Shown in pieces: positions 1-6,814 of a stretch of DNA of 57,531 nucleotides. The DNA lies in NCBI GenBank assembly GCA_025357945.1, contig JANYLJ010000024.1:1-57531 (forward strand). Direction: 5' to 3'. Each line of letters opens with the position of its first letter. Positions within the stretch are counted from its first letter, which is position 1. This stretch comes from Gemmatimonadota bacterium (GTDB lineage: Bacteria > Gemmatimonadota > Gemmatimonadetes > Gemmatimonadales > GWC2-71-9). The translations under genes and the position numbers were made by a program. The notes beneath the pieces are model-generated. The model did no database searches. It had not been told where the DNA came from and saw only the letters and a program-made list of their open reading frames with translations.

Positions 1-146
1 GCAGGGGGCGTTGCGGCTCGGAGCCGTGGACGGCGTGTCGCCGCCGACGAGGCGGAGGGGAGGGTCGTCACGGTGTTGAGGCATGGCGGAAAAATAGGCG
101 CGGCCCGACGCAACGGCGGATCGGCGGACCTCCCGGCTGATCCGCG

Positions 147-180
147 TGAGGTCGGAGGTTCAACTCCTCCTCGGCCCACT
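147..180 (+). other. tRNA-Ile-like 3' fragment, probable attachment site
   Basis: From about 153 to 179 the sequence is a tRNA 3' half. It has a T-arm with stem GGAGG/CCTCC and loop TTCAACT (about 165-171), then an acceptor 3' strand TCGGCCC with discriminator A. The bases just upstream, including GAT at 149-151, recall a tRNA-Ile anticodon region. No matching 5' acceptor strand (GGGCCGA) or D-arm exists in bases 1-146, so the gene is incomplete. The integrase gene lies directly downstream and points at it, which is the usual arrangement for tRNA-targeting integrases. I infer an att site generated by tandem integration, with the intact tRNA to the left of the window. Confidence 0.6.
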
Positions 181-286: not shown

Positions 287-1465
287 TCAGGACGACACTG
301 AGACCAGCCGCGTTCGATTTGCTAGTGCCTCTCGCATCGTGACCATGTCGGCGCGTTGGTAACACTTCAGGATCGTCTGCGGCTCTTTCCATCCGCCCAT
401 GTAGCAAAGATCCTTGAGCGGGGTGTTCTTCATCTCTGTTGCGAACTTCCGGCGCAGTGAGTGCCAGCCCATACCTGGCTGATGCACAATCCCGGCAAGC
501 GCCTCGCCCCGCTGCCACCAATCCCGCCAAAGATGCCGGGAGCATGGCTGAGAATTGTTCCCCGGAGCGGGGAAGATCCAAGCATCCCCTAGCGAAAGAC
601 TTTCCTTTCGGACCTCTCGCAGTCGTTGCTGCAATGCAGCCAACAACTCCGGTGACATTGGAGTCTGATGTTCGAACCCGATCTTGTCGTTTGCTGCCCG
701 CCAACGAATGGTCGTGTTTTCAAAATCAATGTCCGACCAGCGCAAGAGGCTAACCGCCCCAATGCGGTGCCCCGTAGCGTTCGCGATTACCAACCCCGTC
801 TCAAACATCGGGTCAATTCGAACCGCCACATTGAGCAACGCGAGGTAGGTCTCGTCATTCACGATGGGGCGCCGGGGTGATTCTTCCTTTGGGTACGGGA
901 GCCCGTGAAGCGGATTTCGCATGAGCAGCGGCCGACCTTCAGTGTCGGTAACGGACATTGCCCAGTTGATCGCTGACCGTAGGAACTTGAGGTCGTGAGT
1001 AATCACGCGATTACCGACCGGTTTTCCTTTCGAGCGCCCTTCGCGCTGGTCGCCTCCCTTTCGCCGCCAAACGATGTACTGATCCCAATCACGGCGACTC
1101 AGCGTTGACACCTTCCGACTACCCCCAAAGCTGTTGAGAAAGAGCCTTGCCGCTCGCTTGTCGTGGTTCCGCTTGCTCACACCCTTCTGCGGAGTGACCT
1201 CTTGGAGATAATCCGACAGCATCACCTGAAGGCTCATTTCCTTCATGATGACTTTGTCGGGCTCTCGAAGCGCGACCGCTACTTCCTCAGCTTTCTTTTT
1301 CGCGGCGTCTCGGTCGCGGTGCCCTAGGGCAATCCGCTTCCGCTTGCCCTTCTCGCGAAATTCGAGGAAGATCATTCCGGTCTTCGGATGCTCGAAACAG
1401 CAGCACCGATTGCCACCGCCCCACGCTCCAGCCGAGTAGCTCCATCGTTCTTTCGTTCGGGTCAT
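287..1465 (-). CDS. int: Phage-type tyrosine recombinase (integrase)
   Basis: Site-specific integrase of 392 aa, the usual length for the family. An N-terminal arm/core-binding SAM-like region (about 60-190) precedes the catalytic domain. Visible catalytic residues are Arg234 (ATGHRIGAV), His335 and Arg338 (HSLRRKF), a Trp in GGW in place of the second His, and the nucleophile Tyr369 (KCYQ). The start overlaps the stop of the upstream gene by four bases, indicating coupling. The gene ends about 100 bp from the tRNA-Ile fragment and is transcribed towards it. It most likely integrates and excises the element occupying the first 6 kb. Confidence 0.92.
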   Translation of the reverse strand: MTRTKERWSYSAGAWGGGNRCCCFEHPKTGMIFLEFREKGKRKRIALGHRDRDAAKKKAEEVAVALREPDKVIMKEMSLQVMLSDYLQEVTPQKGVSKRNHDKRAARLFLNSFGGSRKVSTLSRRDWDQYIVWRRKGGDQREGRSKGKPVGNRVITHDLKFLRSAINWAMSVTDTEGRPLLMRNPLHGLPYPKEESPRRPIVNDETYLALLNVAVRIDPMFETGLVIANATGHRIGAVSLLRWSDIDFENTTIRWRAANDKIGFEHQTPMSPELLAALQQRLREVRKESLSLGDAWIFPAPGNNSQPCSRHLWRDWWQRGEALAGIVHQPGMGWHSLRRKFATEMKNTPLKDLCYMGGWKEPQTILKCYQRADMVTMREALANRTRLVSVSS

Positions 1466-1872
1466 CGTTTCGCTCCGTTGGTGGAGTTGACGACAGCCCG
1501 CGCGACCTCGCCCGGTGTTGCGGGGACAATTCTGAAGGCCTGGGGCAGGGGGCGCAACCCGGAAGCCTTCCTGGGCAGGTCAGAACGCCTGATTTTGGGC
1601 GCTCCGGGGCGTCCGGCATTGGGAATGACCCCCTTACGAACCTGCGCCCCAAGGTGATCCGGGGAATACCCGGACTCGGCAGCGGCTTCCTGCAGGTTGA
1701 GCACGATTTCCATCTCGGCAGCGACCACGAGGTCGAAATCCCCCAGAATTTCCTTGCACAACTCCGCGCCGTCCACCGTGGCGTGGCGCCTGCGAAGCGC
1801 GTCAGCTTCGTCGCGCCACTTCGTGCGAAAGTGTTCGGGAGTCACTCTCCAAAGTCCCCGTGACGATGCCAT
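1462..1872 (-). CDS. Small HTH-like protein, possible excisionase or accessory factor
   Basis: 136 aa, not assigned to a named family. The middle part (about 62-100: AAAESGYSPDHLGAQVRKG followed by a basic R-R-S-D-L-P-R-K stretch) has the spacing of a MerR/excisionase-type winged helix, in which a tyrosine-containing helix is followed by a short beta wing. The N-terminal 50 residues are charged and probably helical. It overlaps the gene above by 31 bp and the integrase below by 4 bp, so it is co-expressed with the integrase. A role in excision control is inference from that position. Confidence 0.6.
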   Translation of the reverse strand: MASSRGLWRVTPEHFRTKWRDEADALRRRHATVDGAELCKEILGDFDLVVAAEMEIVLNLQEAAAESGYSPDHLGAQVRKGVIPNAGRPGAPKIRRSDLPRKASGLRPLPQAFRIVPATPGEVARAVVNSTNGAKR

Positions 1873-2498
1873 AGATCATCTACCTTTTTCGATTCTTGCG
1901 CCGAACGCTCGCGACGCGGGCGCCAGTCCTCGCCGGTCTCATTGAACCCGCTTCCCCAGTTCTGCTTGATGTACAACCATCGTTCGTAGTCTGTGCGAAG
2001 ATTTCCAATGGTATCTCGCACGAACCGCTGCTGCGTCGTGGCATCGTTGCCCAATAGTTGAAGCATCTCCGGCCCCATCTCACGTAGCGCGGATTGGAAG
2101 AGTCCCTCCGCCTCAACCATGAACCGCGTGGAAATCGGACCGCCGTAGATGGCGTCATAACAACCCCGAGCAGTCTGCTTCCATGTGAGCGTCAATTCGC
2201 GCAATGCTCGATCATTGAACAGCTCACCGACGAACCTCTTCAACAGCGCGGCGCGGAGATGTCCAGCCTCGACGGGCAGCTGATCGCCGGCGGCGGGAAT
2301 GTGAAGTCGTGGTTGTACGTGCATCACGTACCGCTGCACGGTCCGGACGCTGCACCCGACGCGCCCCGCTATTTCAGGGTAGCTGAAACCTTGAACACGT
2401 AAGGCCGTCATCATATCGATCTTCTCCTGATGCATACGCTGCCCGCCTGCCCGTTTCGGCTCTTGCGTCTTGGACTTTGTCGGTACGCGCTCGCTCAT
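1842..2498 (-). CDS. HTH-domain protein of a mobile element
   Basis: 218 aa. After a basic N-terminus there is a clear helix-turn-helix at about 30-58 (SYPEIAGRVGCSVRTVQRYV), of the kind seen in resolvase-tail and homeodomain-like proteins. The remaining 150 residues are helical and rich in Arg and Trp, without a motif I recognise. It sits in the int operon and overlaps the next gene by 31 bp. It could be a regulator, a terminase-small-subunit-like protein or a replication accessory protein. Only DNA binding can be supported. Confidence 0.6.
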   Translation of the reverse strand: MSERVPTKSKTQEPKRAGGQRMHQEKIDMMTALRVQGFSYPEIAGRVGCSVRTVQRYVMHVQPRLHIPAAGDQLPVEAGHLRAALLKRFVGELFNDRALRELTLTWKQTARGCYDAIYGGPISTRFMVEAEGLFQSALREMGPEMLQLLGNDATTQQRFVRDTIGNLRTDYERWLYIKQNWGSGFNETGEDWRPRRERSAQESKKVDDLWHRHGDFGE

Positions 2499-2638
2499 CG
2501 TCAGTCCCCAGTCCGCCAGTCGGACTCGATGTGGACCGAAACCGGACTAAACACGGTCATGCTCCGGCCGTGCCACGGACCTGAGGCAGCATCTCAGATG
2601 CCTTCCCAGGCCCGAATAGGCGTCGTCACGCAGCAGGT

Positions 2639-3016
2639 TTACGCAGCGGCCGCATTGGAGCTTGGTGCAGCAACGGCAACCGTCCAATTGTGCTGAGTTT
2701 TTCCCGACATTGCAGGATGGGGCGCAAGTCCGTCGTAACGGACGAATACCTGCGTACCGACGGGCACCTGTTTCAGGAGTCGGTCAAGCACCGCACTGCT
2801 CCATACTGCGGACAGTGGACCGTCATCTGAATCACCTTGGCAGAACGCATGGACGTGATGGGCCCCCTTCGCGTTCTTGAGGTCGCGGGCCCCCCGGTAC
2901 TCAATGACCGAACCGTCCTTCAATCGGTCGTACTCGACGATCACGAACTCCGGGCCGTCCGCCTCGGGATCGGGCAGCGCGACAAAACCGGGCGGTAGCT
3001 TGGCGGAACTAGACAT
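2639..3016 (-). CDS. Possible OB-fold single-strand DNA-binding protein
   Basis: 125 aa, no signal or membrane segment. The stretch V-P-V-G-T-Q-V-F-V-R-Y-D-G-L followed by a short hydrophilic turn and a final beta strand ending in W-T-V-A-V (about 84-115) resembles the last strands of small phage OB-fold proteins. The gene overlaps the end of the Rep gene by 8 bp, so the two are translationally coupled. A single-strand binding protein beside a rolling-circle Rep makes biological sense, but the family match is weak and rests on pattern and context. An uncharacterised element protein is the alternative. Confidence 0.5.
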   Translation of the reverse strand: MSSSAKLPPGFVALPDPEADGPEFVIVEYDRLKDGSVIEYRGARDLKNAKGAHHVHAFCQGDSDDGPLSAVWSSAVLDRLLKQVPVGTQVFVRYDGLAPHPAMSGKTQHNWTVAVAAPSSNAAAA

Positions 3017-3500
3017 GTTTCCCTCTCTTGGTTGGTAGAACGACTAGTCCAGGCAGCGATGGCTGCCTGTCTCGCGCTGCAAGCGCCCGCGCGAGGTTGG
3101 GCGACACGTCGTAGTCGAACATCTCTTTCACGACGTACTTCGTGATGTAGTGCGTTGCGCCGCGATCCTGCTCGTACAAATCGATCCTCGAAAAGCCATG
3201 CTTCCATTTCCTCGCGATGTAGTTGGCCGGCAGATCGCGAGTGTTACCGACGAGACCGTGCATGTGAAGGCGACCGTTGAGCGGTCCATCCTCGAAGCCG
3301 ACGAACCAGAACAACGGCATCCCTGCTTCCAGCTCCAGGCAGCGAATCCATGCGGTGAAGGTGCGGCGGGCTCTGTCTGGCCCGCTGTTCTTCTTGAACG
3401 TCAGCGTGACGTAGTGGTCCCATGGAATTTCATTGAGCCATTCTGCCCAGCCTTCGTGAACTTTTCGTCGCACCTTCGCTGCGCGTATTACGTCGCTCAT
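3009..3500 (-). CDS. rep: HUH-type rolling-circle replication initiator
   Basis: 163 aa. It shows the three motifs of HUH endonucleases in order: motif I YVTLTF at 30-35, the metal-binding His-x-His of GRLHMHGLV (His79, His81), and the catalytic-tyrosine motif YITKYVVKEM with Tyr118 and Tyr122 and nearby Lys121/Lys125. Proteins of this type nick a specific single-stranded site in a hairpin origin and stay linked to the 5' end. The short length and YxxxYxxK arrangement recall Reps of ssDNA phages and small integrative elements. A 12-bp perfect hairpin lies just upstream (3522-3554) and may be the origin. Confidence 0.8.
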   Translation of the reverse strand: MSDVIRAAKVRRKVHEGWAEWLNEIPWDHYVTLTFKKNSGPDRARRTFTAWIRCLELEAGMPLFWFVGFEDGPLNGRLHMHGLVGNTRDLPANYIARKWKHGFSRIDLYEQDRGATHYITKYVVKEMFDYDVSPNLARALAARDRQPSLPGLVVLPTKRGKHV

Positions 3501-3920
3501 TGTTGGTCAGGCTCATGGACACACTGCGTGGGCTTCAAGTCTGCCCACGCAGTGCGTCTCGGTCTGCGTTGGCGCTTGCGAGCGAAGCTCGGAACTACTG
3601 CTACCCAGTTGAGGGAGCTTGCCTGCCGACGAGGAACCGTTCTAGGTTCAGGTCCCCGGTCAGGCTCCAACGCTTCGCCCGGTGCTGATCGTGACCGCGC
3701 GCCGAGGGTGACAGCCCTATGACGCGCGCGCTTCATTTTCTGCCATTGCGAGGGCGCCGCCCTCTGCACTCCCGGACAACTTTTAGTGGGGCGGCGCCCG
3801 GATGACCTATGGCGGGTCCGGGACGCCCCAGGCAGACCGACCCTCCGGTGTGCCGCCCATGCGGCTTGGGAGTTGTCACAACCCAGCCGCACGCTTCTTG
3901 GACCGATTGCCGTCCGACGG
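3501..3920. other. Gene-free leader region upstream of rep, candidate replication origin
   Basis: About 420 bp without a convincing gene. It contains a perfect hairpin at 3522-3554, a G/C-rich tract rich in GGCGCCG near 3751-3800 that could fold, and a short palindrome (GAACC-N6-GGTTC) at about 3640-3655. An open frame spans it on the minus strand and touches the rep start, but its product is a low-complexity Arg/Pro/Ser chain with no SD sequence, so I do not call it. This is the natural place for the double-strand origin and the rep promoter. Confidence 0.45.
3522..3554. repeat. Perfect 12-bp hairpin, 22 bp upstream of rep
   Basis: Arms CACTGCGTGGGC and GCCCACGCAGTG pair without mismatch around a 9-nt loop (TTCAAGTCT). 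Perfect stems with an exposed loop immediately upstream of an HUH Rep gene are typical nick-site (dso) structures. A regulatory hairpin in the rep leader is the alternative. Confidence 0.65.
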
Positions 3921-4067
3921 TCAGTCGTCTTCATCGTCGAACAGGAGGGCCCTGAGTTCCTCGCGTAGTTCGCCGTCCGGAATGTCGGGGTCGTCGAGGA
4001 GCGCTGCGATTTCTCCCACCAGGTCTCCAGATTCCGGCGAATCCACGTCCAATTCAGTTCCTCGCAT
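3921..4067 (-). CDS. Small acidic protein, unknown
   Basis: 48 aa with about one third Asp/Glu, ending in DDEDD. I chose the start at 4067 because the mRNA there reads GAAGGAGAAGAGAG followed by ATG, a strong Shine-Dalgarno site. It overlaps the end of the upstream small gene by 14 bp. No family is recognised. Such small acidic proteins in mobile elements can be DNA mimics or regulators, but nothing here proves that. Confidence 0.6.
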   Translation of the reverse strand: MRGTELDVDSPESGDLVGEIAALLDDPDIPDGELREELRALLFDDEDD

Positions 4068-4290
4068 CTCTCTTCTCCTTCGATTGTGTGTGTTCGTCGC
4101 GCAAGCGCTGGCGTGCGAGTTCACGCAGAGCGACTGCAAGCCCTCCCACCGCTGTGCGGACGTCGTAGCGGTCGTCGGCCCCCAGCGACCCGTATTCGAG
4201 CAGATGGCGCATCAATCCCATCGCCTTGCGCACGCGGTCTGTCGGCATGGGGGGTGACAGACGCGCCAGCCCGTTGCTTGCTCCCGACAC
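4054..4290 (-). CDS. Small basic helical protein, unknown
   Basis: About 78 aa if it starts at the GTG at 4290, which follows an AGGAGGA site (4294-4300) at short spacing. An internal ATG at the MPTDRVRKAM segment is an alternative. The second half alternates Arg and Leu (LRELARQRLRDE) and would form an amphipathic helix. It is coupled to the acidic gene downstream by overlapping reading frames. Function unknown. Confidence 0.5.
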   Translation of the reverse strand: MSGASNGLARLSPPMPTDRVRKAMGLMRHLLEYGSLGADDRYDVRTAVGGLAVALRELARQRLRDEHTQSKEKRDARN

Positions 4291-4334
4291 ATGTCCTCCT
4301 GAGGTCGACAGGTGTGTGCTCGTCAGAAGCACAA

Positions 4335-4361
4335 AGGGCCCGGTCGAATTGACCAGGCCCT
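4335..4361 (-). terminator. Hairpin downstream of the 360-aa unknown gene
   Basis: AGGGCC-C-GGTC and GACC-A-GGCCCT pair across a 5-nt loop. On the minus strand it is followed by TTTGTGCTTCT, a weak U tract. It lies 41 bp after the stop of the gene ending at 4403 and before the small-gene pair, so it may separate two transcripts. Confidence 0.5.
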
Positions 4362-4402
4362 CACTTATCTCCCCTCAAATGGTCTATCGGTTACAGACCC
4401 CC

Positions 4403-5485
4403 CTAGGCTCCGGCGTCGCCGAGGCGGACGCCCGCCCTATGCCGATGAGTTTTTAGCCGGTTCGCCTCGGCTGGGTCCATCGGCTCGATTCCCCACATCG
4501 GCATCATCACCGCGCACATCTGATCGGGGGTAAATCGCGCTCGCACAATGGCATGCAATCGTCGGAGTGTCGGGTGCTGCCCGGGTTCTCCCACCCGTTT
4601 CAAGAGAAGTTCCCGTTCGTCACCCGGCCATGCCTGCAAAGCTCTCGTCCACACCTCTCGACGACCGTCTGTCACCTGTGTTTCGTCGCTGTCATCGTCC
4701 TGGCGAAATGGGTAATACGTCTCGATAACGGTCTCGGCCAAACGGTGGCATGCCTCGCGTTCGACGCCGGGGCCCGGCTCTGCCGGTAGCGATTCCAGTA
4801 CCGTTGGCAACGCGGCAAGCATGGCGAGGCGAATCACTGTCTCGGCCAAGCGCACCTTTGGCTCAGTATATTCTCCGCGAAGTTCTGTCGCATGCGGGAT
4901 GAGTCTCGCAAAGGGTTTCTCACCCCGCGCTTTGTCAACGTGCCAGAGTCTCTCCGGTTCTTCGAACACGGTTGCAATCAAGCCAATCATCATTGCGAGA
5001 CGTACGGGCGCTGGTTGAATGGCGCGTGCCTCACTCAGAAACATGTTGAAGAAGGGACCAAAAGACGAAATGCCAATGAGCTCGTTATCTGGACTAAGCA
5101 ACACGACTCGACCAGCGGCGCCCGACTCCGCAATCGACGACGGTTTCGCCCTTAGCAGCTGGCGTTGGATCGGGCGCGGCAGGGTGTCGATCCACCGATC
5201 ATACGGCCGGCCGACGCCGTCACTCCCGAAGACAACACCCTTGGCATACAGCCAACTGCGGTGGGGCCGTCGCTGCGCATTGAGCATTCGATGCAATCTC
5301 CGCTGCATCGCATCCGTCGCGTAAATCGCGAACGAAGGCGCATGAATCACTTCGTAGGGAATTCGAACGCAGTTGTATTCGTTGAGTTCAAAGTATCCGT
5401 TCGCGCGAGGGTCCTCGGGTGCGATTCCTCTCAGGAAGATCCACCGGTGCAGCGAAGACCCACCTTCAATCGGTGAAGCTGACAC
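4403..5485 (-). CDS. Uncharacterised 360-aa element protein
   Basis: I start the gene at the GTG at 5485 because GGAGGA lies 4 bases upstream. The longer frame would run into the preceding HTH gene. No family is recognised. Visible features are a Trp/Tyr-rich N-terminal third (FELNEYN, YDRWID), a hydrophobic middle section (PVRLAMMIGLIATVF) that looks like a buried helix more than a membrane span, and a helical C-terminus. There is no signal peptide and no metal or nucleotide motif. It follows the excisionase-like gene by 22 bp, so both are probably one transcript. It could be a replication, maintenance or cargo protein. Confidence 0.6.
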   Translation of the reverse strand: MSASPIEGGSSLHRWIFLRGIAPEDPRANGYFELNEYNCVRIPYEVIHAPSFAIYATDAMQRRLHRMLNAQRRPHRSWLYAKGVVFGSDGVGRPYDRWIDTLPRPIQRQLLRAKPSSIAESGAAGRVVLLSPDNELIGISSFGPFFNMFLSEARAIQPAPVRLAMMIGLIATVFEEPERLWHVDKARGEKPFARLIPHATELRGEYTEPKVRLAETVIRLAMLAALPTVLESLPAEPGPGVEREACHRLAETVIETYYPFRQDDDSDETQVTDGRREVWTRALQAWPGDERELLLKRVGEPGQHPTLRRLHAIVRARFTPDQMCAVMMPMWGIEPMDPAEANRLKTHRHRAGVRLGDAGA

Positions 5486-5507
5486 ACGGTCCTCCACGCG
5501 GGTCGAT

Positions 5508-5891
5508 CTAGTTGACGAGCCACATGCCCTTTGGGCGTAGTTCGATTTCAGCGTCCTTCGCAAAGCGGAGCAACTCCGCAACGCTTAGGCGGGACACGCC
5601 CAGCACCTTGATGTCCGTCAGTTCTCCCGCGCGAACCAATCGGTTTACCTGCATCCGACTCAACCGTAGGAACGCAGCGGCTTCCTCCTGTGACACCTCG
5701 TCGGTTCGAGTAAGCGCTCGCCAATGCCATTTCCCTCGCACCAGCTTGCGCAACGTCATTCCCTCCGCAGGATCTGGAGGGTTCGGGAGAAAGCGGGCCT
5801 CCCTCTCTGACAAGACGCCCCCGCGCGTCGAGGAAGGTGGCCGCCCGAAGACGACGCGGATTCGTGGATTTGGGCGAAATGGCCGGGGCAT
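5508..5891 (-). CDS. Excisionase-family HTH protein
   Basis: 127 aa from the ATG at 5891; an ATG at 5918 is also possible. The C-terminal half reads TDEVSQEEAAAFLRLSRMQV, then NRLVRAGEL, then a beta turn and RLSVAELLRFA. This is the classic excisionase/MerR-like winged helix: recognition helix, then a wing that tells the protein which residue pair to read. The N-terminal 60 residues are basic and probably disordered. It would bend DNA at the att site or regulate the element. An AT-rich promoter-like site lies just upstream. Confidence 0.75.
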   Translation of the reverse strand: MPRPFRPNPRIRVVFGRPPSSTRGGVLSEREARFLPNPPDPAEGMTLRKLVRGKWHWRALTRTDEVSQEEAAAFLRLSRMQVNRLVRAGELTDIKVLGVSRLSVAELLRFAKDAEIELRPKGMWLVN

Positions 5892-6529: not shown

Positions 6530-6565
6530 CTATTTGCCGAGGCCTATCGCGGCGTGAGAGTCTAA

Positions 6566-6814
6566 CTACGAACTGTGTCCTTGACGGGGAAGCTTACGAT
6601 CTGATGACCCGCCCACCGAGAGCGCGTAATCGGAGAGGATGTTGGTGAGATCACCTGTCCCACCAACCGATGCCCCGCTCTGTACCAGTGTGAGCGTTAG
6701 GAAATAGCCGCCGGCAGTCGAACCGAACCAGCCGCCACTGAGCGATACTGGGTCATCGCCGCTCGAACATGATCCGACTAGCACGAACACCACGACGAGC
6801 ATCGCTTTGCGCAT
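6566..6814 (-). pseudogene. Truncated lipoprotein gene
   Basis: 82 aa. The N-terminus is a clear lipoprotein signal: MRKAM, a hydrophobic core, then VGSC with the lipid-modified Cys at residue 16. It is followed by a beta-rich start (SGGWFGSTAGGYFLTLTLVQSGASV) typical of the small single-domain lipoproteins common in this kind of genome, which usually run past 120 residues. The last 15 codons are Arg/Lys/Gly rich and do not fit, suggesting a 3' truncation or frameshift. Confidence 0.45.

What the first reader, a model, noticed from the sequence alone, without database searches (positions are those of the whole stretch)
287..5891. Integrative element using tyrosine integrase plus HUH Rep and a possible OB-fold partner
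A minus-strand series of overlapping genes couples int, two HTH proteins, OB-like protein and an HUH Rep, with no capsid, portal or relaxase gene recognised. It may be a rolling-circle integrative element or a satellite of an ssDNA phage. The 360-aa and two small proteins have no assigned function.
Basis: partly seen in the sequence, partly recalled or inferred. Interest (0 to 1): 0.55.

Follow-up and report, generated by a model that had tools for sequence, protein, structure and literature searches.

The report
Mosaic tRNA-anchored rolling-circle integrative element
A small stretch of mobile DNA in an environmental bacterium carries an enzyme for inserting itself at transfer-RNA genes together with a virus- or plasmid-like rolling-circle copying set, but no recognised genes of its own for virus particles or cell-to-cell transfer.

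Summary
Window 136 to at least about 5930 is an integrative element of a Gemmatimonadota genome: int (287-1465), two HTH genes, a 125-aa OB-like protein, an HUH Rep (3009-3500, PF23343), two small ORFs, a conserved 360-392-aa protein and a Xis-like HTH gene. The set is collinear in a second species of the genus, at tRNA-Arg. Added here: (1) it is a mosaic: 136-1844 matches a tRNA-Ile island of that species (84% DNA), and from 1841 on it matches that species' tRNA-Arg element (up to 83%). (2) A 16-bp hairpin with loop AGACTTGAA just upstream of rep is conserved, and CTTG-loop hairpins recur at three other Rep loci: a likely replication origin. (3) In sister elements the OB slot holds a true SSB, and the Rep there groups with filamentous-phage Reps. 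The left junction is a tRNA-Ile 3' half cut in the anticodon loop; no right att was found, so the right end may be eroded. No capsid, portal or relaxase gene was recognised. Excision, replication and transfer are inferred. New variant of a known kind: like an AICE or integrated rolling-circle plasmid without transfer genes.

The parts
136..179 (+). left att junction: GCTGAT then tRNA-Ile 3' half, cut in the anticodon loop
   Evidence: 84% match to 3' half of a tRNA-Ile; island homology starts at 136; same form of junction in the tandem islands of G009
287..1465 (-). int, tyrosine integrase
   Evidence: PF00589 3.4e-15; 88-97% identical to an integrase at a tRNA-Ile tandem junction in G009
1462..1872 (-). 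hthA, HTH protein, possible directionality factor
   Evidence: weak HTH_17; 83% to G009:C8 copy; function inferred
1841..1844 (.). mosaic breakpoint between the tRNA-Ile and tRNA-Arg lineages
   Evidence: end of C8 and start of C9 homology
1842..2498 (-). hthB, HTH protein
   Evidence: PF13384 and PF08281 above cut-off; 81% to L014
2639..3016 (-). OB-like protein, putative ssDNA-binding partner
   Evidence: 44% to L014 copy; SSB PF00436 in the same slot of G080; model strand order b-b-b-a-b-b at pLDDT 48.5
3009..3500 (-). rep, HUH endonuclease
   Evidence: PF23343 4e-10; H79, H81, Y118, K121 invariant in 5 Reps
3518..3558 (-). hairpin with loop AGACTTGAA, candidate double-strand origin
   Evidence: conserved, recurrence near Rep, folding z -5.78
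3771..3840 (-). non-coding block, 69 of 70 bases identical to L014; role unknown
3921..4139 (-). small acidic ORF, 72 aa
   Evidence: 70% over 56 aa in L014
4054..4332 (-). small ORF, 92 aa
   Evidence: 58-60% in L014
4403..5581 (-). conserved 360-392-aa protein, unknown function
   Evidence: 72-74% in L014, 47% in L058; 2 of 395 genomes
5508..5891 (-). Xis-like HTH protein (start taken at 5891)
   Evidence: TIGR01764 2.1e-4 below cut-off; 62-69% in L014
5909..5928 (-). last short match to L014 upstream of the Xis-like gene
   Evidence: 19 of 20 bases, E 0.15

Best explanation
An integrative element with a rolling-circle replication module. Int, helped by one or more HTH proteins as directionality factors, excises it as a circle by crossing over in the anticodon loop of a tRNA-Ile-type site. 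Rep nicks the hairpin next to its own gene at CTTG and starts rolling-circle synthesis; the OB-like protein covers the displaced strand. The circle can re-integrate at tRNA-Ile sites, also in tandem behind other islands. It has no known transfer genes, so it must spread by a helper, by transformation or by an unknown route. This copy is a recombinant of an int/hthA module of the tRNA-Ile island lineage with an hthB-OB-Rep-392aa-xis module of a tRNA-Arg element. Shown from sequence: gene set, collinearity, breakpoint, left junction, conserved origin-like hairpin, SSB in sister elements. Inferred: excision, nicking, replication, any transfer, and present mobility.
For: Collinear set in G009. Related elements beside intact tRNA-Ile in G080 and G090 and beside tRNA-Arg in G009. 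Left end exact at 136 and mosaic breakpoint at 1841-1844. Tandem junctions of the same form in G009:C8. HUH and Tyr motifs invariant. Hairpin with CTTG loop: 5 of the 7 found in 480,555 bases lie within 500 bases of a Rep gene; folding better than all shuffles in 4 of 4 tested. CTTGATA is the reported nick site of pC194-type origins (PMC10378824, passages). SSB in the OB slot.
Against: No right att site or second tRNA-Ile half found. 10 of 15 Rep loci tested lack such a hairpin, and the 5 with it are about three independent cases. OB fold not significant. The 392-aa protein is unexplained. Two related islands share int, hthA and hthB but have no Rep, so the Rep module is optional.
Confidence: 0.7

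Rival explanations
1. A satellite of a filamentous or other ssDNA phage: rolling-circle ssDNA is packaged by a helper's coat and export proteins, as RS1 uses CTX phage.
For: G080/G090 sister Reps group with inoviruses XaF13 and L117 at 99/98 (XaF13 35% identity, E 1e-17); window Rep has weak microvirus Rep hits; no structural genes.
Against: Zot in 0 of 12 Rep-carrying genomes; the window's own Rep does not group with the inovirus or microvirus Reps sampled (weakly resolved); no packaging signal known; none of the viral-contig scans with window proteins found a relative.
Confidence: 0.12
2. A tailed-phage satellite or other phage-packaged island: rolling-circle concatemers are packed by a helper's terminase.
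For: In two remote Rep loci a small-terminase-like gene lies next to Rep: G388 PF03592 1.6e-36, G318 phrog_3218 8e-7.
Against: Window hthB shows only a generic HTH and no TerS match below 0.01; no TerS elsewhere in the window element.
Confidence: 0.1
3. A mobilizable element in which Rep acts as the relaxase and a resident conjugative element supplies the pore.
For: HUH initiators can serve both replication and transfer (PMC5714925, passages).
Against: No relaxase, coupling or Tra-type match among 10 products; the Rep is a short single-domain protein. Conjugation systems elsewhere in the genome were not searched.
Confidence: 0.08
4. A decayed, immobile remnant in this genome.
For: No right att found; piece like an IS end at 6551-6599 beside a shortened ORF; the left flank is not a tRNA 5' half.
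Against: The main ORFs are open and Rep motifs intact. Contig C52 ends exactly at base 141, inside the att core, which suggests cells with and without the element (inference).
Confidence: 0.3

Closest known systems
Actinomycete integrative and conjugative elements (AICEs, pSAM2 type; PMC3218068)
   Same: tyrosine integrase at tRNA 3' ends, Xis-type gene, rolling-circle Rep, tandem insertions and tRNA remnants as sites
   Different: no FtsK-type Tra; Rep is PF23343 (only the sister Rep has a sub-threshold RepSA match, 7.5e-5); OB or SSB partner; other phylum
Integrated rolling-circle plasmids (PMC6668415)
   Same: chromosomal HUH Rep replicon bordered by att sites; exchange of Reps between plasmids and ssDNA viruses
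   Different: here an own integrase module related to that of cargo and defence islands, and a swap of the integrase module
Filamentous-phage satellites such as RS1
   Same: small element with a Rep and without morphogenesis genes
   Different: RS1 integrates through host XerCD at dif (recalled); here own integrase at tRNA sites; no helper seen
Inoviridae (XaF13, L117) and Microviridae
   Same: Rep of related type
   Different: no coat, Zot or major capsid gene recognised in the element

Membership tests
AICE | site-specific integrase at a tRNA 3' end | tested here: met
   PF00589; tRNA-Ile 3' half; relatives at intact tRNAs
AICE | replication initiator of RepSA, RepAM or Prim-Pol type | tested here: not met
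   window Rep matches PF23343 only; sister Rep RepSA 7.5e-5 below cut-off
AICE | FtsK/SpoIIIE-type Tra | tested here: not met
   no such match among 10 products
IME | relaxase and/or oriT | tested here: not met
   no relaxase match; oriT not testable
Inovirus or inovirus satellite | coat and Zot/pI genes (virus) | tested here: not met
   none among 10 products; Zot in 0 of 12 genomes
Inovirus or inovirus satellite | packaging by a helper (satellite) | not testable with these tools
   needs particles
Microvirus provirus | major capsid protein VP1 | tested here: not met
   no match
Rolling-circle replicon | HUH motif and catalytic Tyr | tested here: met
   H79, H81, Y118, K121 invariant in 5 Reps
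Rolling-circle replicon | nickable hairpin origin | tested here: inconclusive
   conserved CTTG-loop hairpin at rep; nicking not tested
Integrative element | both att sites | tested here: inconclusive
   left junction clear, right not found

The most novel reading that the evidence does not exclude
Gemmatimonadota hold a class of tRNA-anchored elements that swap whole replication modules (Rep, SSB or OB protein, origin hairpin) with filamentous phages and integrase modules with defence islands, and that travel as rolling-circle DNA in helper phage particles; Rep-TerS pairs in some members would be their packaging tools.
Probability: 0.15. Interest if true: 0.75.

Novelty: new variant of a known kind. 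Interest (0 to 1): 0.5.

Why it matters
It is a small, well-bounded model in which integration, origin, Rep and ssDNA-binding partner can each be tested, in a phylum whose mobile elements are little described. The sharp module swap shows how an element can change its tRNA target, and the shared Reps link chromosomal islands with ssDNA phages.

Tried and rejected
Rejected: an intact tRNA in the window. Rejected: Rfam matches at 3517-3559 and 93-230, all below gathering score; the first is the hairpin itself. Rejected: the 145-aa ORF as a gene. Rejected as a firm right att: CTGAT at 6601, which abuts the IS-end-like piece. Led nowhere: AlphaFold of the 392-aa protein (pLDDT 35.7) and of the OB protein (48.5); Foldseek of the latter gave nothing at E <= 0.001 (several top-ranked hits are OB folds, as recalled). 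Viral-contig scans with the window Rep, the 392-aa protein, hthB and the sister Rep alone found no relative; the five-Rep alignment found 2. The kinase flank was too common and the SEC-C flank too rare to give an empty site. Structural-gene check of related loci: 69 ORFs from 11 loci, based on the 87 listed with 27 or so mostly antisense or doubtful ones dropped and some overlapping genes added; 49 PHROG families matched, only 25 were shown, so the 24 unseen could include a structural family.

Full report
The window is contig C30 of a 3.0-Mb genome. A genome of the same genus, G009, is a Gemmatimonadetes metagenome assembly (PNAE01000003.1), so the host is Gemmatimonadota. The stated ORFs exist. 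The integrase (PF00589) and the HUH Rep (PF23343, 4e-10) are clear; hthB has an HTH; hthA and the Xis-like product have weak HTH or excisionase matches; the 125-, 72-, 92- and 392-aa products match no family with confidence. No capsid, portal, relaxase or FtsK match was found among the 10 products.

The same set in the same order lies in G009:C9 (locus L014), next to tRNA-Arg(ccg). The 392-aa protein was found in 2 of 395 phylum genomes, this one and G009, twice in G009; the second G009 copy (C1, L058) sits with int and hthA but without Rep. Rep-like genes were found in 17 of 395 genomes; five of these supplied the search alignment, and some are weak or broken. I read ORF lists around 16 of the 17; for G071 (L070) I only ran BLAST and ARAGORN. 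In nine (window genome, G009, G080, G090, G169, G132, G210, G388, G321) an integrase gene, split in the last two, lies in the stretch read (by eye); G155 has a fragment.

Sister elements in G080 and G090 stand beside an intact tRNA-Ile(gat) and read int (50% identical to the window's), hthA, a MerR-like protein, SSB (PF00436 1.2e-32 in G080), Rep; G080 goes on with an acidic 67-aa protein and a Xis-like gene, while the G090 contig ends in or just after rep. The AlphaFold model of the 125-aa protein has the OB order of strands and helix, but mean pLDDT is 48.5 and Foldseek found nothing significant. G080's island is longer: a further tRNA-Ile 3' half lies about 18.5 kb downstream on the same contig, with cargo between.

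The left end is exact. Homology to an island in G009:C8 starts at window 136, at GCTGAT, and runs to 1844 at 83.8% DNA identity; homology to the G009:C9 element starts at 1841, 82.6% over 1841-2465 and 72.9% over 3396-5802. The breakpoint falls between hthB and hthA. So the integrase module is of the tRNA-Ile lineage and the Rep module of the tRNA-Arg lineage. In G009:C8 two islands stand in tandem at tRNA-Ile, with junctions GCTGATAAGCGTGAGG at L127 19140 and L128 16571; the second carries the integrase most like the window's (88% and 97% in two pieces), and neither has a Rep match. The window junction GCTGATCCGCGTGAGG is of this kind, so the window element probably sits behind another island or at a secondary site. 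The left neighbour gene (SEC-C protein, by eye) was found in 1 of 10 genus genomes, its own. The tRNA-Ile query found no intact tRNA-Ile in this genome, only tRNA-Val-type matches and the window half, so the tRNA end may be missing from the assembly.

Contig C52 ends with window bases 1-141 exactly. I read this as an assembly overlap that joins C52 to the window; that it ends at base 141, inside the att core, suggests that cells with and without the element exist. This is inference.

The right end is unresolved. Homology to L014 fades by 5928. No second tRNA-Ile half was found. Window 6551-6599 resembles DNA near the start of C52, next to a reading frame MRKSKFTEAQIVAVLQEGVAGM that I recognise from memory as the start of an IS3-family OrfA. 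A short lipoprotein-like ORF at 6566-6814 seems cut there (by eye). This copy may have lost its right att.

Origin. Directly upstream of rep lies GACGCACTGCGTGGGC-AGACTTGAA-GCCCACGCAGTGTGTC. In L014 the hairpin keeps the same loop, with one T-A to G-C change on both sides, but also weakened or lost pairs. G080 and G090 have a 14-bp hairpin with loop CGACTTGA between Rep and SSB, and G200 a 17-bp hairpin with loop TCCATCCTTGT near Rep. In 480,555 bases of loci 7 such hairpins were found; 5 lie within 500 bases of a Rep gene (P 4e-6, too small because the five are about three independent cases). The other two are at window 30675 and L060 10798. Ten of the 15 Rep genes tested have none. Dinucleotide shuffles of the Rep regions gave 0.01 per set. 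Folding beats all 200 shuffles in 4 of 4 hairpins tested. One paper reports CTTGATA as the conserved nick site of pC194-type origins (PMC10378824, passages); another says that origins often lie upstream of rep and that the pMV158 nick site is in a hairpin loop (PMC5703833, passages). A further block, 3771-3840, is identical to L014 in 69 of 70 bases, against 73% for the surrounding 2.4 kb; its role is unknown.

Rep kinship. Window and G009 Reps group together (97/97) among other Gemmatimonadota element Reps in a weakly resolved clade; the G080/G090 Reps group with inoviruses XaF13 and L117 (99/98). I call L117 and L118 inoviruses from their Zot-like and coat-like ORFs by eye; XaF13 is annotated so. 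Thus Reps of different origin sit beside homologous integrases. Replication modules of inoviruses are known to be exchanged with plasmids (PMC6668415, passages). A Zot match was found in 0 of 12 Rep-carrying genomes, which gives no support for a resident filamentous helper.

Transfer. Nothing in the element points to conjugation. In two remote loci Rep lies next to a small-terminase-like gene: G388 (PF03592 1.6e-36) and G318 (phrog_3218 8e-7). That hints at phage packaging for some Rep islands, not for this one. Several related islands carry defence-type genes (Old, BrxD, methyltransferases, families shown only in part).

Print. The listings of searches showed no paper on such an element in Gemmatimonadota; the library is partial and only the listed rows were seen. 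The closest kinds are AICEs (PMC3218068, passages) and integrated rolling-circle plasmids (PMC6668415). It fails the AICE test on Tra and on initiator type, so I file it under the wider kind, integrative elements with rolling-circle replication, as a new variant.

Noticed in passing
G080:C15 and C128, G090:C8, G249:C12, G157:C68, G077:C6 (L101-L105, L129): Clustered copies of the tRNA-Ile 3' half, each starting at CCTGATAA and preceded by a shared arm AGTGAAC..GCGCACAAA..TGCGCA..GGGGT, with cargo such as PIN/antitoxin-like genes between (names by eye). Nine near-full-length copies in 5 of 287 order genomes (list cut after the best rows). Looks like an array of integrase-less islands.
   Followed up: partly
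L127 1240 to L128 16571 (G009:C8): Two tandem islands at tRNA-Ile with int-hthA-hthB and restriction- or methylase-like cargo, no Rep match (cargo named by eye).
   Followed up: partly
L063 2364-3598; L064 80-1107: Rep next to a small-terminase-like gene.
   Followed up: partly
window 6551-6814: About 50 bases like an IS end next to a shortened lipoprotein-like ORF.
   Followed up: partly
window 1-141: Identical to the end of contig C52; assembly branch inside the att core.
   Followed up: partly
L058 5750-9956 (G009:C1): Element with int, hthA, a MerR-like protein, small acidic ORF and the 392-aa homologue (47%) but no Rep or OB gene.
   Followed up: partly
window 30675 (-); L060 10798 (+): Two strong CTTG-loop hairpins that are not beside a Rep gene; unexplained.
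   Followed up: no
L014 6079-6531 (-): Phage-type membrane protein (phrog_3996, 3.7e-29) just beyond the Xis-like gene of the G009 element.
   Followed up: no
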